From the NCBI GenBank assembly GCA_001464965.1, contig LNEJ01000031.1, forward strand, positions 1 through 44,214: a DNA stretch of 44,214 nucleotides, given 5' to 3'. Under the pieces are notes generated by a model. The model was not told the DNA's origin. It saw only the letters and a list, made by a program, of their open reading frames with translations, and searched no databases. How positions within the stretch are numbered: the first letter of the stretch is position 1; each line of letters begins with the position of its first letter. This stretch comes from Gammaproteobacteria bacterium Ga0074134 (GTDB lineage: Bacteria; Pseudomonadota; Gammaproteobacteria; Ga0077554; Ga007554). Below, in pieces: positions 733 through 41,532 of this stretch. Both the position numbers and the translations under genes were made by a program.

Positions 733-762
733 TTGACGCTTCTCCCCGCTAACCTCTACAAT
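733..762 (+). promoter_or_regulatory. Sigma-70 promoter ahead of the cobalamin riboswitch
   Basis: TTGACG at 733-738 and TACAAT at 757-762 are separated by 18 bases. Transcription would start near 769, just before the first conserved riboswitch bases, which fits a leader transcript for btuB. Confidence 0.6.
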
Positions 763-769
763 TCGCCCT

Positions 770-985
770 TCGCTTCAGGTGGCCCAAAGGCATTCGCCCA
801 AGGGCTTAAACGGGAAGCCGGTGTGTTCTGCCTTTCAAGGTGAGAACAAGGCCGGCGCTGCCCCCGCAACGGTATGCGAGTCAAAGAGTAGCAACACGCC
901 ACTGTGCATTGCATGGGAAGGCGCTGCTCTTGGGAATTTTCCCGCTCGTAAGCCCGGAGACCGGCCTGTAGCGTTGTGATGACAT
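770..985 (+). promoter_or_regulatory. Cobalamin (B12) riboswitch
   Basis: The conserved blocks of the cobalamin riboswitch occur in order: AAACGGGAAGCCGGTG around 808-823, GCTGCCCCCGCAACGGTA around 857-874, the B12-box GCCACTG followed by TGCATGGGAAGGC around 898-922, and AAGCCCGGAGACCGGCCT around 950-967. It lies directly upstream of btuB and should repress it when adenosylcobalamin is plentiful. The expression platform is not certain. A short CAGG/CCTG hairpin followed by TTTTT at about 1011-1027 could be a terminator, but sequestering of the btuB ribosome site is equally possible. Confidence 0.93.
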
Positions 986-7172: not shown

Positions 7173-8006
7173 ATGATGAACGCAAGAACTGATCACTATG
7201 CCGTGATGGGTAACCCTATCGCTCATAGCAAGTCACCGCAGATTCATGCCCTGTTCGCGCGCCAGACCGGCCAGAATCTAGTGTACACCGCCATTCTGGT
7301 GGAACAGGGCCGTTTCGCTGAAGCCGTATCCGCCTTTGTGGAGGCTGGCGGCAAGGGCCTGAATATTACCGTGCCGTTCAAGCGGGAGGCGTGGGAGCTG
7401 GCCGATGAGCGCAGCGCGCGTGCGGAGCGCGCGGGGGCGGTGAACACCTTATTGTTCCGTGCGGATGGCACGAGTTATGGCGACAACACTGATGGTGCCG
7501 GCCTGGTGCGTGACCTGCGTGCCAATCATGGCGTAGAGATTGCTAGCCAGCGCATATTGCTGCTTGGCGCTGGAGGTGCAGTGCGCGGCGTGCTCGGCCC
7601 GTTGCTTGAAGAGCATCCCGCTCAACTGGTCATTGCCAATCGCACAGCGGACAAGGCAATCGCTTTAGCCAAAGAATTGACGGATTTCGGTCCGGTTTAC
7701 GGATGTGGCTATCAAGATATTGACGCACAACGGTTTGATCTCATCATCAATGGTACGGCGGCCAGCCTGAAGGGAGAAGTGCCGCCACTGCCCGCTGTCA
7801 CGCTGAGTGAAGAGTGCTGGTGCTATGACATGATGTACGGTGCAGAGCCGACACCCTTCATGCTTTGGGCAATGCAACATGGAGCGCGGAAAGGGCTGGA
7901 TGGCTTGGGGATGCTGGTGGAACAGGCCGCCGAAGCGTTTTTTCTGTGGCGAGGGGTGCGCCCGCAGACTGTGCCGGTGATTGATGCGTTGCGAAAGCAA
8001 CTCTAA
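7173..8006 (+). CDS. aroE: Shikimate dehydrogenase AroE
   Basis: AroE reduces 3-dehydroshikimate to shikimate with NADPH in aromatic amino acid synthesis. The 277-residue product has the substrate-binding N-terminus ([13 protein letters not shown]), the catalytic Lys70 in NITVPFK and Asp107 in GDNTDGAG, the Rossmann motif GAGGAVRG near residue 131, and the NADP-binding NRT segment. ATG 7173 is chosen over an upstream in-frame TTG-type start near 7104 because AAGGA lies at the right distance and the protein then begins like other AroE proteins; a second ATG at 7176 is equally possible. The stop codon abuts the palindromic repeat element at 8006. Confidence 0.95.
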
Positions 8007-8147
8007 GAACCTGTTCACGATCTCGCTGAAGGGCACATTGCGGCGTTAAAATCGAACTCAAAATGCTCACATACTTCGTGTATGCTCCGCTTTTTCGTTC
8101 GATTTTGCCTTCACTGCATCCCTTGATCGAGATCGTGAACAGGTTCT
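8006..8147. repeat. 142-bp palindromic repeat element, copy 1
   Basis: The element is bounded by perfect 20-bp inverted arms, agaacctgttcacgatctcg at 8006-8025 and its exact complement at 8128-8147. An inner perfect 10-bp stem pairs 8048-8057 with 8097-8106, and a central CATAC/GTATG hairpin sits around 8070-8084. A second full copy lies at 32805-32947. The core of about 40 bases (from TCAAAATGCTCACATAC to CCGCTTTTTCG) differs at one base between copies. The last base of the aroE stop codon is the first base of the element. No open reading frame of its own is apparent, so it resembles a MITE or large REP-type element. Confidence 0.88.
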
Positions 8148-8189
8148 AAAGAATTTCAAGGCGGGTGCTTTGCAGTGCCTGGTTCCACA

Positions 8190-9394: not shown

Positions 9395-10156
9395 ATGGCA
9401 GGCCATAGAGTTCCTGGCCCGTTGGGCATGGGTGATAACACACCGGAAATCGACAGCGGGACGATGGCTCTAACCGCATCTCCGTTGCCCAGCCCGATTG
9501 GAACCGATGCATTCAACAAGTATTTGGCAGACTCTGGACAAGGCGGCAGCCGAATATCTGCCCGCCAGGCATGGGATGCATCCACACAACAAGTTCAGAA
9601 ATTGGATATGCCCACCCAGCAGTTCCAGACCTCGGAAGGCGGATCGCGCCGCCTCACCAGCGGTGAAATCGCGATGGCGCGCTTGATCTTCAAGGATTCC
9701 ATCGACTACTCAAAGGTCAAAGTGCACAACGGCGAATACCTGTGGTTCGGCCTGCAGCCGGATGATACGGCCATGACGCCAAATGGGGAAATGTATTTTA
9801 ATTCGGCAAATTTCAAGGAGGATTTCTCCATATCGACTGAGAGATTTCGGCGCTGGTTCATGCACGAGATGGTACATGTCTGGCAGCACCAGCTCGGCTA
9901 TCCGGTGAAATGGCGCGGTGCGATTCGAGTTGGCCTTCCATATGAGTACACCCTCGATGCCGGGAAAAACCTTGGCGACTACAACATGGAAGCGCAGGGC
10001 GACATCGTGGCGGACTACTTCGCGCACACGGTTCTGAAGCGGCCCCAGCTGATTGAGCAAAAAAGCAATCGGGACCCAGCGCTCATTCCGCTCTACCAAG
10101 CTGTATTGGCAGGATTCCTGGCGAATCCTTCGGATAAGAAGAGTTTGCCTAAATGA
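9395..10156 (+). CDS. Zinc metallopeptidase of the Vgr-related type, possible secreted effector
   Basis: The 253-residue protein has the zincin motif HEMVH at 157-161 followed by WQHQ, and a likely third zinc ligand Glu199 in NMEAQGDIVADYF. Upstream lies LTSGEIAMARLIFKDSIDYS, the segment typical of proteins annotated as Vgr-related, which are associated with type VI secretion and Rhs loci. There is no signal peptide; the first 90 residues are Gly/Pro/Ser-rich and low in complexity. ATG 9395 was chosen because AAAGGAGC lies just upstream, rather than a TTG at 9332. The stop codon overlaps the start of the next lipoprotein gene (ATGA), implying coupled translation. I infer a peptidase effector paired with lipoprotein immunity proteins. 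No secretion-apparatus gene is in the window, so the export route is unproven. Confidence 0.7.
   Translation: MAGHRVPGPLGMGDNTPEIDSGTMALTASPLPSPIGTDAFNKYLADSGQGGSRISARQAWDASTQQVQKLDMPTQQFQTSEGGSRRLTSGEIAMARLIFKDSIDYSKVKVHNGEYLWFGLQPDDTAMTPNGEMYFNSANFKEDFSISTERFRRWFMHEMVHVWQHQLGYPVKWRGAIRVGLPYEYTLDAGKNLGDYNMEAQGDIVADYFAHTVLKRPQLIEQKSNRDPALIPLYQAVLAGFLANPSDKKSLPK
10108..10152 (+). repeat. 5' edge of the tandem duplication, original copy
   Basis: This stretch at the 3' end of the metallopeptidase gene (GGCAGGATTC ... CGGATAAGAAGAGTTTGCC) recurs in altered form at 10767-10810. It marks the left edge of the segment duplicated together with the lipoprotein gene. Confidence 0.75.
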
Positions 10157-10662
10157 GGCTTGGCTGGATGTTCCGCGCCCTGGCGGCCACTTTCCTATTG
10201 CTACCGATCGCCTGCACGGCCTCTTCTCGCATGGCCGATGCCGTTGTTACCGAACGCGATGGTCAGCCTTGTTTCGCACTCAGCGATCAACCAATTAACA
10301 GAGTGAACGCGGCTATAGTTGATGACCTATCGACTGTACCACCAACCAGCATCTGGGTAGTCGACATCGATCACGAATCAGGCAAGCTACTGGCTGGCTG
10401 CGTTGTCTATGGGCAGGTATTCCCAAATCAGAAAGCGGGCCATGTGCCAGCGACAACTTTGCGTATCGGCCACATTTACGAGGTCGGCTTGATGGCGGAG
10501 CGTATTGACCCTACTGATCCGACTCAGGGATACGTCGCGCGATTTTGCCTCGCGCCGCAACCTGGCAACGCAAAACCCCGAGTTCGCCAGATAGTCTGGA
10601 ACAAACAGGCGGGACGCTGGGGCGATGAGGTTTGTGGGCTTCAGCAACGCGAGAAACCGTAA
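10153..10662 (+). CDS. Lipoprotein A of a tandem pair, candidate immunity protein
   Basis: The family is not recognised. The 169-residue product has a lipoprotein-type signal (hydrophobic LAATFLLLPIA then Cys21; Pro at -3 is unusual for a lipobox), so it is probably anchored in the periplasm. The mature domain has conserved blocks CFALSDQPINR, SIWVVDID, CVVYGQVFPNQKAGHVPATTL and IVWNKQAGRWGDEVCGL, with Cys residues able to form disulfides. Its ATG overlaps the stop of the metallopeptidase gene by one base. A near-copy follows 148 bases downstream. An effector gene followed at once by a periplasmic lipoprotein, itself duplicated, is the usual shape of a toxin-immunity locus; that role is inference. 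Confidence 0.72.
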   Translation: MRLGWMFRALAATFLLLPIACTASSRMADAVVTERDGQPCFALSDQPINRVNAAIVDDLSTVPPTSIWVVDIDHESGKLLAGCVVYGQVFPNQKAGHVPATTLRIGHIYEVGLMAERIDPTDPTQGYVARFCLAPQPGNAKPRVRQIVWNKQAGRWGDEVCGLQQREKP

Positions 10663-10766
10663 GCTGAAGGATAGGAATTTCAACCGCACAAATCAAAATA
10701 TCCATCTCCGCAGCACATAGGTCAATGCCAAATATTTCGTTGAGCGTCCAAAGGCGAATTGAAAGG

Positions 10767-10810
10767 GCAGGATTCACCAGGAATCCTGCGGATAAGAAGA
10801 GTTTGCCAAA
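10767..10810 (+). repeat. Duplicated relic of the metallopeptidase 3' end
   Basis: Before lipoprotein B, the sequence repeats the last codons of the metallopeptidase gene. It reads in frame as NPADKKSLPK and a stop, against NPSDKKSLPK and a stop at the true gene end. The rest of the metallopeptidase gene is absent. The duplication unit therefore spans effector tail plus lipoprotein, with a spacing of 658 bases between the two lipoprotein starts. Confidence 0.75.
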
Positions 10811-11323
10811 ATGAGGCCTGGCTGGATGTTCCGCATCCTGGCGGCGACTCTCCTATTGTTACCGATCGCCTGCACGGCCACTTCCCGCATGGGTGCTGCC
10901 ATTGTGACCGAGCGCGATGGCCAGCCTTGCTTCGCGCTCAGCGATCAACCAATTAACAGACTGAACGCGGCTTTGGTTTATGACCAGTCGACCAGGCCAC
11001 CTACCAGCATCTGGGTAGTCGATATCGATCCCGATCGAGAAGGCAAGGCACTGGTTGGCTGCGTTGTCTATGGGCAGGTATTCCCGAATCAGAAAGCGGG
11101 CCATGTGCCCGCGACAGCTTTGCGTATCGGGCAAGTCTATGTGGTTCACTTGATGGCGGAGCGTATTGACCCTGCGGACCCGACTCAGGGATACGTCGCG
11201 CGATTTTGCCTGGCGCCGCAACCTGGCAACGCGAAACCACGAGTTCGCCAGATAGTCTGGAACAAACAGGCGGGACGCTGGGGCGATGAGATTTGTGGGC
11301 TTCAACGACTCGAAAAGCCGTAG
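10811..11323 (+). CDS. Lipoprotein B of a tandem pair, candidate immunity protein
   Basis: This 170-residue protein is a close paralog of the preceding gene and is nearly identical over long blocks (CFALSDQPINR, the CVVYGQVFPNQ stretch, the whole C-terminal third). It has the same signal sequence and acylation-type Cys21. Differences cluster around residues 44-60 (LVYDQSTRPP, DPDREGKALVG) and 96-106 (GQVYVVHLMAE), so the copies may differ in binding specificity. The start context and Shine-Dalgarno region come from the duplicated effector tail, AAGAAGAG at about 10794-10801. It is probably co-transcribed with the metallopeptidase and lipoprotein A. Confidence 0.72.
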   Translation: MRPGWMFRILAATLLLLPIACTATSRMGAAIVTERDGQPCFALSDQPINRLNAALVYDQSTRPPTSIWVVDIDPDREGKALVGCVVYGQVFPNQKAGHVPATALRIGQVYVVHLMAERIDPADPTQGYVARFCLAPQPGNAKPRVRQIVWNKQAGRWGDEICGLQRLEKP

Positions 11324-11341
11324 TCTGGAGCTGCCTTAACG

Positions 11342-22307: not shown

Positions 22308-22331
22308 AGAACCTGTTCAACATCTCGCTGG
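22308..22331 (+). repeat. Solo left end of the palindromic element
   Basis: AGAACCTGTTCAACATCTCG followed by CTGG matches the first 24 bases of the element at 8006 except at two adjacent positions and the last base. No core or right arm follows. It lies just before the next start codon, and its end contributes the GGAGG ribosome site of that gene. Confidence 0.7.
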
Positions 22332-22339
22332 AGGTTGTT

Positions 22340-22696
22340 ATGAATCCCAATGCCAAAGCCCCTCGTATCAAGAATGATGATGTCATGTATCTGATGTTGC
22401 GCGATGGCCGGATCGCGGAGTTTAATGACAAGAAGGCAACAGGCGCGGCCATCGACCTGGTGAATTGCGATTTTCGCGGTCTGGATTTGCGTGGTTTGGC
22501 CGCGGACGGGCTGGATTTGAGTGGTGCTTATTTTCGTCAGGCCGATCTTCGCGGCGTTGATTTTAGCAAGTGCCGGCTGGAAGGCGCCAGTATTCATGCG
22601 ACCAAGATCTCGGGAACCTATTTTCCCGTAGAATTGAGCGCGGATGAGATTACGCTGTCATTATTGCATGGGACGCGGATGCGGTATTCGAAGTGA
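22340..22696 (+). CDS. Pentapeptide-repeat protein
   Basis: The 118-residue cytoplasmic protein carries a short run of pentapeptide repeats (A-D/N-L-x-x type) between about residues 38 and 90: DLVNCDFRGLDLRGLAADGL, DLSGAYFRQADLRGVDFSK and so on, forming a small right-handed beta-helix. The N-terminus (about 1-36) is a non-repeat cap with DDVMYLMLRDGRIAEFN. Its function is unknown. The leader comes from a solo end of the palindromic element, which supplies GGAGG at 22330-22334. It is convergent with amgK and ends one base before the amgK stop. Confidence 0.82.
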   Translation: MNPNAKAPRIKNDDVMYLMLRDGRIAEFNDKKATGAAIDLVNCDFRGLDLRGLAADGLDLSGAYFRQADLRGVDFSKCRLEGASIHATKISGTYFPVELSADEITLSLLHGTRMRYSK

Positions 22697-31001: not shown

Positions 31002-32768
31002 ATGAAGATAAGCGGGTTCAAGAATTCAAGCGGGCTTATGAATATAAGCATGTTCAAGAACATGGGTGTGAACACCTTGCTGTGGTTGCTGGTGGGGTTG
31101 ATGTCGCTGGCGGTGGTAAGCATTGGGGCGTTCGGGTTTTACAGTACCTACAAGGAACAGGTGCTTGCCGTGGCAACGGTGGATGAAGGCGAGTTGGATA
31201 TCAAGATGCTCGACCAGGTGCAGGAGGCAGCCATCTCGCTGAACAGAGAGCTGGAGGCGTGGAAGAATATCCTGCTCAGAGGTGAGAAACCCGAGGATTA
31301 TAAAAAATATCTGGATATGTTTGAGAAGGAAGGAACCCAGGCCGACTCAAAATTAAAAGCGGCAAAGCAACTGATGGCGAATCGTGCTGGGCTGGATACC
31401 GCACTGGTGGATGCAGTGCTAAAGAAGCATCAGGAACAGATTGCGGCGTATCGGGAGGCCTTGAAGAGCTATGACCCCGCTCGTCCTTTCGAAACCGCCC
31501 ACACGGTGGATGATTCCATTCGTGGCCTGTTCGATGCTACATGGGAGAGGATGGATGCCCTTAAAAATAAAACAGACTCATACATTCCTCAGCGTCTTGA
31601 GAGTGATAGAAAAGGTGCGCAGGAAGCCTTCGATGACAGCCGTGTAACTTTTATCGTGGTGGTGATCCTGGCATTGGTGCTGACGTTCGCTCTTGCCTTT
31701 CCTATCAGAAAGGGTGTCAACCAGGCCATTAATAAAGTGAATTCCCTGCTTGCCGATGCCGAACAGCAGAACCGCCGCAACCAGGACGCGATTTTACGCT
31801 TGCTGGATGAGGTGGCCGATCTGGCGGACGGCGATCTGACCAAGAAACCTGTGGTGACGGAAGACTTCACCGGCGCTATCGCTGACTCGCTGGGCTACGC
31901 TATCGACACGCTGCGCGGGCTGGTGGGATCGATCAACACTACGGCGGTGAAGGTGGCTACCGCGGCAACGGAAACCCAATCGACGGCGATGCGGCTCACT
32001 GAGGCTAGTGATCAGCAGGCGCAGGAAATTGAGACTGCGGGCGTGGCTATTTACGAGATGACGAAATCCAGTGAACGCGTCTCGGCGAATGCCGCGCAGT
32101 CAACCGAGGTGGCGCAGCAGTCGGTGGATATCGCAAAGAAGGGCGCGGAGACAGTGCAAGGTACCATTCAGGGTATGGAATCCATTCGCGAGCAGATTCA
32201 GGAAACCTCGAAACGTATCAAGCGTCTGGGTGAAAGCTCCCAGGAGATCGGTGAGATCGTGGGGCTGATCAATGACATCGCCGACCAGACCAACATTCTT
32301 GCCTTGAATGCATCTATTCAGGCGGCTATGGCAGGTGAAGCGGGACGCGGTTTCTCGGTGGTGGCGGATGAGGTGCAACGCCTGTCCGAGCGTGTGGCCA
32401 ACTCCACCAAGCAGATTGCAACCTTGGTGAAAACCATTCAAGCCGACACCAACGAGGCGGTGATTTCCATGGAAAAGAGCACCTCCGGCGTGGTCGCCGG
32501 TACACAGCTGGCGCAGGGCGCAGGTAAGGCGCTCGAAGAGATCGAGGGCGTGTCCGGGAACCTTGCCCGCTTGATTGGCGACATTGCTGAAGCAGCCAAT
32601 CAGCAGACGATAATGGCAAACACAGTGTCCAGTACCATGAAAATGATTCAGGAAGTGACCACGCAGGCATCGCAAGGTACCAAGCAGGCCGCGGCATCCA
32701 TCGGTGAGTTGACAGGGATGGCTGGCGAATTGCGGAAATCGGTGGCCGGCTTCAAGCTGCCCGCGTGA
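31002..32768 (+). CDS. pilJ: Methyl-accepting chemotaxis protein PilJ
   Basis: PilJ is the receptor of the twitching chemosensory array; in Pseudomonas it responds to pilin state and surface contact. The 588-residue product has a first membrane helix (about 26-52), a periplasmic helical region (about 53-215), a second membrane helix ([17 protein letters not shown]), a HAMP-like stretch and a cytoplasmic signalling domain. The hairpin tip reads [18 protein letters not shown] and then [19 protein letters not shown]; the [11 protein letters not shown] variant is typical of PilJ rather than flagellar receptors. ATG 31002 follows AGAGG at good spacing; a TTG at 30996 is the alternative. Confidence 0.93.
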
Positions 32769-32804
32769 TAGCGGCAGAGTGCAGCGTCCTGCCTCCTGGG
32801 GGTT

Positions 32805-32947
32805 AGAACCTGTTCGTGCCCTCGCTGAAGGGCGCATCGCGGCGTTAAAAATGGCCTCAAAATGCTCACATACTCCGTGTATGCTCCGCTTTTTCGGCCA
32901 TTTTTGCCTTGCGCTGCATCCCTTGATCGAGGGCACGAACAGGTTCT
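32805..32947. repeat. 143-bp palindromic repeat element, copy 2 (inside pil-chp operon)
   Basis: The arms AGAACCTGTTCGTGCCCTCG (32805-32824) and its exact complement (32928-32947) are perfect. The inner stem AAAAATGGCC (32847-32856) pairs perfectly with 32896-32905. The core is identical to copy 1 except for one base, but both stems differ from copy 1 with matching changes on both sides. It fills most of the 213-base gap between pilJ and chpA and is read through by the operon transcript, so it could act as an attenuator or RNA processing site. Confidence 0.88.
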
Positions 32948-32981
32948 TTTGGACATACTTGATTACAAAAAGGTGAGCGGC

Positions 32982-35900
32982 ATGATATCGGCGGAGCATA
33001 TGGATTATGGCGCCCTGAAGTGGGTAAAGGGTGAGATTGAGGTAAACCTGCAACAGGCGCAACGGGCGTTGGGCGTGTTCCGGGAGCACCCTGCCGAGGC
33101 CGCACAGATCGACTTGTGTATCACTTTGCTGCATCAGGTGCGTGGCGCGCTGCAAATGCTGGATCTTACAGAGGCATTTGCGCTCGCCAGGGAAATGGAG
33201 CAGGCGGTTCGTGTTCTGGCCAAGGATGAAGGTCGGCGCAAGGGCTGGGTCTATGATACCTTGATGCGTGCCATGTCTGAATTGCCATCTTATCTGACGG
33301 GGCTGCAAGAAGCTCAAACAGATCGTCCTCAGCCCTTTTTGCCGTTGATCAATGATTTGCGCGTCGCCACTGGCGCCTCGGTGCTTTCCGAGAGCATGGT
33401 GTTTGGTCTGGCGGTTATCCCTGCTATTTCTCCACACAGCCCCGGCATGCAAGATGAGCTGGAGAGGAATGTCAAGGTGCTGGCCCATCAGCTACGTCCG
33501 GTGTATCAGGCGGGCTTACTGGTGTGGTACCGCGATGCCGGCAATAAAACGGCATTGCGGCGGCTGTTGCAGGTGGCCGTACAGTTGCAGCAGGTGTGTC
33601 CCGAAGAAGGTCTGTGGAGAGTGTCTACGGCGTTGCTTGAACGGTTGCTGGCCGGAACGCTTGAGTCCAACAATGCCATCAAGTTGCTGCTGGGGCAGGT
33701 GGAGCGCCAGATCGGCCGGGTCATGGCGGCGGGATCCGAGGAGTTGCGCGATCATCCTCCCGCTGATCTCATAAAGAATCTACTTTATTATATTGCCTAT
33801 GCCGACACGCACAGCGAGCAGGCTGGGGTTATGGCTGTTTCTGCCGGTGCCGATATGCCGCAGCATATCTGCAGTGGAGTGGATGCCGTCAACCCCGGCT
33901 TGCTGGACATCGCCGCGGATGCAGTCAAGGATGAGCTGGCATGGGCCAAGACCAAGCTGGACGGCTTCGCGCGCGCCGGTGGACGTCATACCCTGCAAGA
34001 ATTGCGTGTAATAGCCGGTGTATTGGCCAGGGTGTCAAACACCCTGGATATGCTGGGCCGCTGGGAACTGCGCCAGCGCGTGCGGCAACAGACCGGCGTG
34101 CTCGATGCGATGTTGGAAGGGGGCGCCATCCTCAATGACCCCCGCTTTCTGGAAGTGGCCAACGCCTTGCTGTATGTGGAATCGCTGTTGCGCGATGTCC
34201 AGATGCCGGATACGGCGGCTTCTGAAAGCAAACCCGCAGACAATCCGGAAGCTGTAAAAGCCGGGACTGTGGAGTATCACGATTTGTGCCGTGCTGTTAT
34301 CCGCGAAATCATGGTTGATATGGGCAAGGTGAAGGACGATATCATAGCTCTTGCCAAGGCGTCCGGTCAGCATGAGTTGATCAGCGCCGCGCCCGCTGTG
34401 CTGCACCGTATCATCGGCAGCCTGAAGATGCTGTCACTGAATCGTCCGGAAGACTTGTTGAAAGCGGCTTACCATTATATCCGGCGCGAGTTGATGGAGC
34501 GCAAGATCACACCATCCCTTGAGGCGCTGGATACCTTGGCTGATATGCTGACCAGTATCGAATTTTATCTGGATACCCTGGCCGAGAGTCAGATGAATCT
34601 TGATTCCCTGCTGGACCTGGCTGATGGCAATGCCATCACTTTAGGTTATCCGGTTGAAACCGTGGACGACTATCCACTGGATGCTGTGATTGGATCTGCG
34701 GTTTCTGGTGAACCCGCTGTTGTTGAAGCCACGCCTCTTCTAATAACAGGCGCCGAAATTTTGATCCCGCCGCCGGTTTCAGACCGTATCGTGCTGAGCA
34801 TGGACAGTGCCAGTCTGGCGGAAGATATTGCTGTGGCTGAGGTTGTCGAGGCTGCTCCAGTATTACCCGCCGCGCTCACCCAGGAAGAAGACGCCGCCGA
34901 GGTGATGGAGATTTTTGTCGAGGAAGCGAACGAGGAGCTGGCTGCAATCGCGCAACACTATCCTCTGTGGAGACAGGATACAAGCAATCATGAGGCGCTC
35001 AAGAGTATTCGCCGCTCATTCCACACCCTGAAAGGCAGCGGAAGACTGGTGGGTGCGAATGTGATTGGTGAAGTCGCCTGGGCCATCGAGCACCTGTTGA
35101 ACAAGGTGCTCGATGGCGAAGTTCCCGTCACGCTGCCGGTGTTCGATGTGGTGGAGCATGCCCAGGCTGTTATGCCAGTGCTGCTGAGACAATTTCAGCA
35201 TGTTAAAAAAAATATGGATATCGGCTCGGATATCCAGTCATTTATAGACCAGGTGCAGGCGGCGGCTTTACCCACGCCGATCTTGGGTGAGCATGTCAAT
35301 GGCGTTCCCGATACGGTGGAAGTGCAACACGAAGCCGCGGTAGCCGTCTCTCCCATGGAGCAGGAGCCAGTAATTGACCCTGTGCTGCTGGAGATTTTCA
35401 GAGTCGAATCCAAGGGGCGCTTGGAAGAGGTGCGGCGATTTATCGATACCTGTGGTTCGGCTAAAAAAGGCCAAGTGACTGAATCGCTGATGCGTAATCT
35501 GCATACCCTGCAAGGCAGTGCGCATATGGCGGGATTTAATGACATCGGTGATCTCGGTGGCTTGTTCGAAAAACTTGTCAATACGATTTATCGCAATCAC
35601 GGCGAGGTAGCGGAAGCGGAGTTGCTTGCATTGAGTGATTTTAGCGGGGTGTTCCATGAGATGCTGCACTTGGAGAATCCGCTTGCTCAGTCTCCGAGAA
35701 AGACAGCGGCACTGGAAAAGATTTCTTTCCTGACGCGCCGCGCGCAGCACCTTCTTGATGTTGCCGCCATGGAGCCAAGTGCTTCTGTTGAAATCGAAGC
35801 CTCCGATGTGTTGGATGATGAGGCATCGGTCTGCGACAGCGATGAAGTGCGCGATGTTTTTCTCGAAGAGGCGACGGAAATTCTGGGCAATACGGAATCT

Positions 35901-39918: not shown

Positions 39919-40007
39919 GGTGCGTCTCACGCACCGCCTTGTGAGAATTCAACATGACCTGCCTGAGCGTTAAAGAGACGCCTTGAACGTGGTGCGTGAG
40001 ACGCACC
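39919..40007. repeat. Pair of inverted 17-bp palindromes between prfB and lysS
   Basis: GGTGCGTCTCACGCACC at 39919-39935 and GGTGCGTGAGACGCACC at 39991-40007 are each near-perfect hairpins (7-bp stem, 3-base loop) and are exact reverse complements of each other. The pair can thus fold locally or as one long stem. This is a known style of environmental intergenic repeat; it may protect the prfB 3' end or partly terminate transcription. Confidence 0.75.
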
Positions 40008-40032: not shown

Positions 40033-41532
40033 ATGACTGACCAAGACCCAATACAAGACGAACATCAACTCATCGCAAACCGCCGCGCCAAGCTGGCAGC
40101 GTTGCGTGAAAGAGGTATTGCCTTCCCCACCGATTTTCGGCGCAACGTGGTGGCGGGCGAGCTGCACGCCAAGTATGGTGATAAGGACAATGAATTTTTT
40201 GAAGCGCAGCCGGTGCGCGTGAAAGTTGCCGGGCGCATGATGGCGAAGCGCCTCATGGGCAAGGCGAGCTTTACCCAGTTGCAGGACATGTCCGGCCGTA
40301 TCCAATTGTTTCTGCAGCGCGACACTCTGCCCGAAGGCGTATACGAAGAGTTCAAGGCATGGGATGTTGGCGATATCCTCGGCGCCGAGGGTGTGCTGTT
40401 CCGCACCAAGACGGGCGAGCTTTCCGTAAAGGTGGAAGAGATCCGCCTGCTGACCAAGGCGTTGCGTCCGCTGCCTGAGAAATTCCACGGCCTGGCCGAT
40501 CAGGAGACCCGTTACCGTCAGCGTTACCTCGACCTGATCGCCAACGAGGTGACGCGCAACACCTTCCGCATGCGCACGGCGATAGTCGATTACATTCGCG
40601 GTTTTTTGAATCAGCGTGATTTTCTCGAAGTGGAAACGCCGATGATGCAGGTGATCCCCGGCGGCGCCACGGCGCGGCCCTTTACTACCCATCATCACGC
40701 GCTGGACATGCAGTTGTTTTTGCGTATTGCGCCGGAGCTATACCTGAAGCGCCTGGTGGTCGGCGGCTTCGAGAAGGTCTATGAGATCAACCGCAATTTC
40801 CGCAACGAAGGCCTGTCCACGCGCCATAATCCTGAATTCACCATGCTGGAATTTTATGAGGCCTATGCGGATTACCGTGACTTGATGGACCTTACCGAAG
40901 AGCTGCTGCGTGGCATGGCGCAAGCACTGCTGGGCACGGCAACGATCACCTATCAGGGAGAGCAATACGAGTTCGGCAAGCCGTTTGCGCGCATGACCTT
41001 GAAGGAATCCATCCTGCATTTCAATCCGGAGATCACGCCATCAGCGCTGGAAGACCTGGCTGCGGCCCGCGCCGTGGCGCATGGGCTCAAAATCCCGCTC
41101 AAGGACAGCTATGGCCTGGGCAAGGTGCAGGTGGAGATCTTTGAAAAGACCGTCGAACATCGCCTGAAAAATCCGACCTTCATCACCGCCTATCCCACAG
41201 AGGTTTCGCCGCTAGCGCGCCGCAACGATGATGACCCGTCCATCACCGACCGCTTCGAATTCTTCGTCGGCGGGCGCGAGATCGCCAATGGTTTTTCGGA
41301 GCTGAACGACGCCGAAGACCAGGCTGAACGTTTTCGCAAGCAGGTGCAGGAAAAAGATGCGGGCGATGAAGAGGCCATGCATTTCGACGCCGACTATATC
41401 TGCGCCCTGGAACACGGCATGCCACCCACGGCAGGTGAAGGCATCGGCATTGATAGATTGACCATGCTGTTTACCGACGCACCGTCAATCCGCGACGTGC
41501 TGCTGTTTCCGCATATGCGGCCGGAGGCTTAA
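40033..41532 (+). CDS. lysS: Lysyl-tRNA synthetase, class II
   Basis: LysS charges tRNA-Lys. The 499-residue enzyme has an N-terminal OB-fold anticodon domain (about 60-145, [20 protein letters not shown]) and a class II catalytic core: motif 1 [10 protein letters not shown], motif 2 [20 protein letters not shown], and motif 3 [14 protein letters not shown]. The product is full length. It follows prfB, as is common in proteobacteria. Its 3' end overlaps the convergent outer-membrane protein gene by 4 bases. Confidence 0.97.

What the first reader, a model, noticed from the sequence alone, without database searches (positions are those of the whole stretch)
32805..32947. Large hairpin inserted within the pil-chp operon between pilJ and chpA
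Copy 2 of the element sits in the only large gap between pilJ and chpA and must be transcribed if the operon is continuous. A perfect 20-bp outer stem around a structured core could reduce chpA levels relative to pilJ by attenuation or RNase III cleavage.
Basis: partly seen in the sequence, partly recalled or inferred. Interest (0 to 1): 0.5.

Follow-up and report, generated by a model that had tools for sequence, protein, structure and literature searches.

The report
Mobile hairpin with a portable core
The hairpin between two type IV pilus signalling genes is a recently inserted, 141-letter jumping element whose folded centre recurs, between quite different ends, in jumping elements of several bacterial phyla; that centre, not any effect on the neighbouring gene, is the interesting part.

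Summary
The hairpin is real (z about -11, perfect 20-bp outer stem) but is not a built-in part of the pil-chp operon. It is a MITE-like mobile palindrome; this genome holds 61 matches to its core. Complete copies end in GAACCTGTTC and lie between identical 3-bp TNA repeats (23 of 28). All three sampled same-genus genomes have the pilJ-chpA gap without it. A sister-genus genome holds an IS5-family element with similar ends. ChpA attenuation is untested: no terminator or promoter was found, copies elsewhere show no significant orientation bias, and chpA keeps its ribosome-binding site.

The surprise is the interior. A hairpin core (conserved tip with TCA/CTCC internal loop, covarying 11-bp stem, GCGTT/GCCTTG box) recurs in 94 of 299 genomes of this phylum, in 33 of 296 of the phylum of an Alistipes MAG, in Desulfobacterales and in a Clostridia MAG. 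It sits between unrelated ends with 2-, 3- or 4-bp target duplications. In this bacterial family three end types share it, always as matched pairs (78 of 78). In four genomes of another lineage it lies between a cobalamin riboswitch and a TonB-receptor gene, about as conserved as the aptamer. Its function is unproven. I found no description in the open papers searched.

The parts
32806..32946 (+). the mobile element (141 bp), type A ends
   Evidence: ends and flanks compared over 28 complete copies
32803..32805 (.). left target triplet TTA; the right counterpart at 32947-32949 reads TTT, so the duplication is imperfect
   Evidence: empty site GTTAGGG or GTTGGGA in relatives
32806..32824 (+). 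left terminal arm GAACCTGTTCGTGCCCTCG; four differences from the genome majority, each matched in the right arm
32928..32946 (+). right terminal arm
32825..32927 (+). core CTGAAG...CTTGAT, found with three different end types in this genome
32838..32912 (+). stretch matched by covariance model R1 (89.2 bits; this copy was one of the model's 56 rows)
32841..32846 (+). left half of the conserved box, GGCGTT
   Evidence: columns
32906..32911 (+). right half of the conserved box, GCCTTG
   Evidence: columns
32846..32856 (+). left side of the covarying 11-bp inner stem (pairs with 32896-32906)
32896..32906 (+). right side of the covarying inner stem
32863..32895 (+). conserved tip TGCTCA-CATAC-loop-GTATG-CTCCGCTTTTTC; internal loop TCA (32866-32868) / CTCC (32884-32887)
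   Evidence: exact pattern scan; alignment A1
32970..32984 (+). apparent chpA ribosome-binding site and start codon, outside the element
   Evidence: by eye; same in relatives without the element
8007..8146 (+). second copy in the window; target duplication TAA at 8004-8006 and 8147-8149, the first being the stop codon of the shikimate dehydrogenase gene
   Evidence: L016
22308..22334 (+). left-end remnant without the rest of the element, just upstream of ORF 22340-22696

Best explanation
It is a non-autonomous transposable element (MITE-like), moved in trans by an IS5-type DDE transposase that recognises GAACCTGTTC ends and duplicates a 3-bp TNA target. It inserted into the pilJ-chpA gap after this species split from its sampled congeners. 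Shown: the family of copies, the target duplications, the empty sites. Inferred: the transposase. The hairpin in any pilJ-chpA transcript is a by-product of the palindrome. Its interior is a separately conserved hairpin module that occurs with several different pairs of terminal repeats (shown). I infer that the module is recognised as a folded hairpin. My preferred role is in DNA: folding holds two ends that lie only 141 bp apart side by side for the transposase, and the fixed unpaired motifs are where a transposase or host protein binds. New end pairs would arise by one-sided recombination followed by hairpin-templated correction of the other arm. This role is the least certain step (about 0.3); a role in RNA is about as likely. 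The confidence given is for the MITE identity plus the separately conserved core, not for the role.
For: 61 core matches in the genome. Identical 3-bp flanks in 23 of 28 complete copies, left triplet TNA in 28 of 28, right in 26 of 28. Empty site in G001, G002 and G003. IS5-family element with ends GAACCTATTCAATATC and a TAA duplication in sister genus G004. Covariation of the inner stem: 232 both-side changes against 85.5 shuffled, 0 of 500. Same core with ends giving 3-bp (45 of 56), 4-bp (3 of 9; 14 of 24) and 2-bp (5 of 5; 6 of 6) duplications. Matched end pairs in 78 of 78 cores with both ends classed.
Against: No element with these ends was found in the window's own genome: its four PF01609 matches have no such repeats and the G004 element has no match there. 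The DDE protein in L171 is split over two frames, so it may need a frameshift or be dead. The window copy's right flank is TTT, not TTA. Two of the five covariation measures do not exceed the shuffles clearly (pairs with a change on both sides 13 against 12.5; further pair types 45 against 40.8, 21 of 500). Nothing here shows that the core is needed for movement.
Confidence: 0.82

Rival explanations
1. The core is an RNA motif. Copies land in transcribed regions, often right at stop codons, and the folded core acts in the message: limiting polarity, stabilising 3' ends, or as part of a leader switch. Selection for this keeps tip and box in elements of many kinds.
For: In four of five fetched f59 loci the core lies between a cobalamin aptamer and a TonB-receptor frame. 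There the core windows have 56 of 75 invariant columns, against 22 of 50 in the arms beside it and 45 of 175 in the coding part. Many copies abut a gene 3' end.
Against: No significant orientation bias (17:13; 27:14, p = 0.06), although the core is asymmetric. No Rfam family matches. In f59 the leader just downstream is as conserved (35 of 50 columns), so the core is not uniquely protected there. Abutting stop codons also follows from a TNA target.
Confidence: 0.35
2. One MITE lineage whose ends drifted: the core is simply homologous by descent and the terminal repeats changed step by step with their transposases, without capture of the core by other elements.
For: Several end types resemble each other (GAACCTGTTCA, GAACCTATCTCA, GGCCTGTTNACA). 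On the core tree the end types are strongly clustered: 3 changes against a shuffled mean of 23.1.
Against: Duplication length differs by class: 2, 3 and 4 bp. Types A, B and C have unrelated terminal sequences in one genome, joined to the core at the same junctions. A rare altered tip occurs on all three types in this genome (L212, L301, L302). The tree needs three end changes, not the minimum of two (few columns).
Confidence: 0.3
3. Attenuator or processing site of the pil-chp operon: the hairpin lowers chpA relative to pilJ.
For: Very stable hairpin in the gap; co-directional flanking genes.
Against: Absent in all three sampled same-genus genomes; no terminator found; the same element sits in 58 examined places of many kinds. 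A fortuitous effect is not excluded.
Confidence: 0.12
4. The stem covariation reflects a mutational process only (hairpin-templated correction of one arm from the other), not selection for a structure.
For: The window copy's outer arms carry four matched differences at once; outer arms, not expected to need pairing for an RNA role, covary as well.
Against: It does not explain why the mismatched tip loop and box persist across phyla while paired parts change, nor the conservation in f59.
Confidence: 0.3

Closest known systems
MITEPsy1 of Pseudomonas syringae pv. phaseolicola (PMC3189936, passages read)
   Same: About 100 nt, IS5-type ends, target duplicated, homologues said to be possibly widespread among bacteria; shown there to transpose.
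   Different: 4-nt duplication CTAG or YTAA and different ends; whether it has this core was not tested (an exact pattern of its ends gave 0 of 25 genomes).
Prokaryotic MITEs in general (review PMC10969869, passages read)
   Same: Under 500 bp, terminal inverted repeats, direct repeats, stable stem-loop transcripts, intergenic.
   Different: The passages describe MITEs as decayed transposons; none describes an interior shared by elements with different ends across phyla.
IS5-family insertion sequences (NCBIfam transpos_IS5_3; candidate L171)
   Same: Ends and TAA duplication like type A.
   Different: Carries the transposase; no hairpin core was seen between its ends (sequence printed).
TIMEs, Tn3-derived miniature elements (PMC4133298, listing and start of abstract seen)
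   Same: Title speaks of mosaic non-autonomous transposons made by miniature elements.
   Different: Tn3-type; no shared hairpin core known to me (recalled, not tested).
REP/BIME and Correia-type repeats
   Same: Dispersed palindromes between genes (recalled).
   Different: Not compared by sequence here; REPs are 20-40 bp palindromes (abstract of PMC3733652 in a listing).

Membership tests
MITE | short, non-coding, terminal inverted repeats | tested here: met
   141 bp, 20-bp perfect outer stem; I take it as non-coding: its only tip ATG frame runs on into chpA
MITE | target-site duplication | tested here: met
   23 of 28 identical 3-bp flanks in this genome; the window copy itself TTA/TTT
MITE | many copies and empty sites | tested here: met
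   61 core matches; empty in 3 of 3 same-genus genomes
MITE | mobilised in trans by a transposase of an autonomous element | not testable with these tools
   candidate only in sister genus G004
IS5-dependent element | ends like those of an IS5-family element | tested here: met
   type A ends resemble L171 ends; types B, C, E and F not paired with a transposase
IS5-dependent element | autonomous partner in the same genome | tested here: not met
   none among 4 PF01609 matches in G000; assembly is in 80 contigs
MITEPsy1 family | homology of the interior | not tested
   interior not obtained
known RNA family (Rfam 15) | match to a covariance model | tested here: not met
   none at the element in the window at gathering score; in 9 loci at E <= 1 the three matches lie elsewhere than the core
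intrinsic terminator or attenuator | GC-rich stem-loop followed by a T run | tested here: not met
   0 found at 32700-33050; the scan does not allow internal loops

The most novel reading that the evidence does not exclude
The core is a self-standing structured nucleic-acid module (covarying stem, TCA/CTCC internal loop, GCGTT/GCCTTG box) that has been captured repeatedly between the ends of unrelated transposons in four phyla, changing transposase and duplication length while staying itself, and that some hosts have taken over as a working part of a B12-riboswitch leader. It would be a new kind of cargo: a hairpin that lets short transposons succeed whatever enzyme moves them.
Probability: 0.4. 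Interest if true: 0.82.

Novelty: new variant of a known kind. Interest (0 to 1): 0.62.

Why it matters
MITEs are usually seen as decayed transposons whose interior is junk. Here the interior is the conserved part and the ends are what changes. That points to an unknown function that short mobile palindromes need, or that hosts use, in several phyla, and it gives a concrete test: break or swap a 33-nt tip and measure transposition, binding or expression. One covariance model would also label many unannotated hairpins in Pseudomonas, Chromobacterium, Nitrosomonas, Desulfobacterales and Bacteroidota.

Tried and rejected
Rfam: no match at the element. Phage origin: no exact tip match in viral contigs and no blastn match in the phage records. 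CsrA-type loop: the ACGGA loop of this copy is not conserved in other rows. Kink-turn and put-like antiterminator: considered from recalled motifs only; the GGAG/UGA loop of the reverse strand lacks a 3-nt bulge, and no significant orientation bias speaks for an RNA-polymerase modifier. Resemblance of GTTRRR to integron attC boxes: wrong arrangement (recalled), dropped. Intrastrand triplex motif (PMC4666352; outline and passages): its E. coli consensus is different, and the passages say no mobile elements were found with it. Two type-C end pairs 0.9 and 1.2 kb apart (L121, L115): the frames between them look like ordinary genes by eye (no profile search). MITEPsy1 membership could not be settled. 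The first junction alignment had three loci on the wrong strand; one search replaces it. Paper searches: (open-licence PubMed Central only). Sequence strings gave 34 papers (20 listed) and 10; those listed look unrelated by title and none was opened. Subscription journals and supplements were not searched.

Rows dropped before counts: one search used 68 of 81 printed tips (enough flank). One search kept 56 rows after removing near-identical ones; of the window genome's rows only those with at least 9 of 11 stem pairs were admitted, which favours pairing in those 5 rows. One search used 58 of the 61 places (three weak ones not fetched). One search dropped, without counting them, cores whose left end fitted none of the three types. 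One search displayed 10 Bacteroidota loci; in L360 the script hit a wrong place.

Full report
OBSERVATION. The hairpin is there and far exceeds chance. Arms 32805-32832 and 32920-32947 are 93% complementary. The fold has 20 unbroken outer pairs, z -11.7 on the plus and -11.2 on the minus strand, 0 of 200 shuffles as stable on either. Neighbours are PilJ-like and ChpA-like by Pfam domains. The gap is 213 nt; other gaps compared in the cluster are 4, 36 and 21 nt.

A FAMILY OF MOBILE COPIES. BLAST of the own genome lists 44 matches, 4 of them reverse-strand matches at places already listed; only 40 of 86 candidates were scored. A covariance model of the core finds 61 places at E <= 1e-3 in 2.9 Mb (E-values rough, the last few weak). 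Among fetched loci of this genome, 28 copies have both GAACCTGTTC-type ends. The three bases outside are identical in 23; the left triplet is TNA in 28 and the right in 26. Over all fetched loci, 45 of 56 type A copies with a core have identical triplets. The unit is therefore GAACC...GGTTC with a 3-bp TNA duplication, and the window copy is 32806-32946. Its own flanks are TTA and TTT, so its duplication is imperfect.

INSERTION HISTORY. The start of ChpA was sought in 8 genomes of the family and found in 7; G004 had no match. In the three same-genus genomes other than the window's own, the junction reads ...GGGGTTAGGGCATACTTGATTACAAAAAGGTGAGCGGCATG or a close variant, without the element. Two other-genus junctions (L223, L224) also lack it; L225 did not show the PilJ end. 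The element is thus private to this genome among those sampled, upstream of an unchanged apparent ribosome-binding site.

WHO MOVES IT. Among PF01609 matches in eight family genomes (30 loci fetched), one (L171, genome G004) is flanked by perfect 22-nt inverted repeats AGAACCTATTCAATATCTTTTT. It is about 865 bp, with an 87-aa DUF4096 frame and a 178-aa DDE_Tnp_1 frame; the second matches NCBIfam transpos_IS5_3 over its cut-off; TAA lies on both sides. Its ends resemble MITE ends such as GAGCCTATTCAATATC in the window's genome (L256). It has no match in that genome, so the current mover there is unknown.

THE CORE. In relatives the element was found in 7 of 7 other genomes of the family and in 6 of 29 more distant genomes of the class. 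Several distant matches keep only the centre (L038-L041). A uniform-base estimate of my own expects about 0.001 matches. None was found in viral contigs. In 68 copies with enough flank, 11 positions left of the tip pair with 11 right of it, best at one register (43-62 of 68 per position; 12 of 68 at the next). On 56 non-redundant rows, 88.2% of cells pair (shuffled 73.3) and 232 cells change on both sides (shuffled 85.5), each 0 of 500 shuffles; slid structures give 33-50% paired. Two weaker measures do not separate well: pairs with a change on both sides (13 against 12.5) and further pair types (45 against 40.8; 21 of 500). The rows were chosen by the tip pattern, so the tip's fixed letters prove nothing by themselves. 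A sample found with the model instead is more telling: of 9 Bacteroidota loci in which the core was displayed, 7 have CC/GG instead of GC/GC just below the internal loop, one CC/GT and one GC/GC, while TCA/CTCC is kept in 8 and is TCA/TTCC in one.

HOW WIDESPREAD. With the model at E <= 1e-4: 94 of 299 genomes of the window's phylum, the window's own included (57 of 239 of good quality; many of the 94 are in one family, f59, often with one to three copies); 33 of 296 genomes of the phylum of an Alistipes MAG, that MAG included. In 20 genomes chosen because they hold a tip, copies range from 1 (Oceanimonas) to at least 150 (Chromobacterium alkanivorans, at the scoring cap); Crenobacter 55, a Nitrosomonas MAG 54, Pseudomonas punonensis 45, the Clostridia MAG 14, the Alistipes MAGs 7 and 8, the alphaproteobacterium 5. 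Pseudomonas plasmids and one Halomonas replicon carry matches. MAG contamination could explain single cases; two Bacteroidota-sample hits lie on contigs over 1.7 Mb (G436, G546). Clostridia rest on one MAG.

DIFFERENT ENDS ON ONE CORE. Flank identity by end type among fetched loci with a core: A GAACCTGTTCA, 3 bp in 45 of 56; B TCCTACTGTGTCACAAA, 4 bp in 3 of 9; C GGGCACCTCTAWAAAT, 4 bp in 14 of 24; E GAACCTATCTCAAAAA, 2 bp (TA) in 5 of 5; F GTGYCCRTCCGGAAACG, 2 bp (TA) in 6 of 6. A Pseudomonas pattern matched no complete copy. Types A, B and C all occur in the window's genome, joined to the core at CG|CTGAAG and CTTGAT|CG. Of 81 cores extracted from own and family loci, 78 had both ends classed: 53 AA, 11 BB, 14 CC, none mixed; 3 had no readable right end. 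In a core tree of those 78 (103 columns; most forks unresolved) the 11 B cores and 14 A cores sit together behind a branch of support 99, and 3 A cores with the 14 C cores behind one of 98; three changes of end type are needed, the minimum being two. A rare altered tip occurs on all three end types here (L212, L301, L302). The window copy differs from the majority at four places in each arm, all matched, which fits hairpin-templated correction. If arms are so readily corrected, the persisting mismatches in tip and box are unlikely to be accidents (inference).

A DOMESTICATED COPY? In family f59, four of five fetched loci have the core just downstream of a cobalamin aptamer, upstream of a frame with a TonB-receptor plug domain in the three tested. 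In the four-way alignment, invariant columns are 56 of 75 in the core windows (350-424), 22 of 50 in the arm windows beside it, 92 of 125 in aptamer windows (175-299), 35 of 50 in the leader windows just downstream (450-499) and 45 of 175 in later windows, mostly coding (625-799) (sums mine). The strand transcribed there is the GGAG/UGA strand. This is the best sign that the core does something in place, though the leader beside it is as conserved.

CONTEXT. With a home-made ORF caller, 50 of 58 copies in this genome are intergenic and 8 overlap a predicted frame. Of 45 with both neighbours, 17 lie with and 13 against two co-directional genes, 8 between convergent and 7 between divergent genes. 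Of 89 copies in other genomes: 27, 14, 17 and 8, and 23 inside a longest-ORF prediction that is cruder in GC-rich genomes (p = 0.06 for 27:14). Several abut a gene end; at 8004-8006 the TAA stop codon of the shikimate dehydrogenase gene is itself the duplicated target.

VERDICT. The finding as given, a chpA attenuator, is not supported beyond the hairpin's existence. What is there is a mobile palindrome of ordinary size with an unusual, portable and widely conserved interior. I found no description of that interior in the open papers searched.

Noticed in passing
window 22308-22340: A lone left end of the element runs into GGAGG six bases before the ATG of a pentapeptide-repeat ORF; the element's remnant may supply that gene's ribosome-binding site.
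   Followed up: no
L276, L278, L281, L283 (family f59): Core hairpin between a cobalamin riboswitch aptamer and a TonB-receptor frame, conserved in place.
   Followed up: partly
L199 (near the start of C20) and L207 (near the end of C43): Two element halves each break off at the hairpin tip into the same sequence (AGGGCTCCCTCATTAAAAAGTAGG...), as if another repeat or insertion sequence sits in the loop.
   Followed up: no
L014, L018, L020, L022, L023, L030 and others: A subset of copies carries an extra block of about 18 bases (..AACCCTTCGCTGCGCTCTT..) in the right arm only; other copies hold small extra hairpins at the GCGTT/GCCTTG box (L217, L293, L295).
   Followed up: no
window 10108-11330: Tandem duplication of about 0.66 kb (86-90% identical) holding two ORFs of 169 and 170 aa.
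   Followed up: no
window 39919-40007: Another inverted repeat (22 nt, 91% complementary, 45 nt apart) near the start of ORF 40033-41532; unrelated to this family by eye.
   Followed up: no
window 32862-32981: The chpA reading frame is open back through the element to an ATG in its tip, so an N-terminally extended frame exists; probably chance.
   Followed up: no
window 760-983: Cobalamin riboswitch (Rfam RF00174, 109 bits).
   Followed up: no
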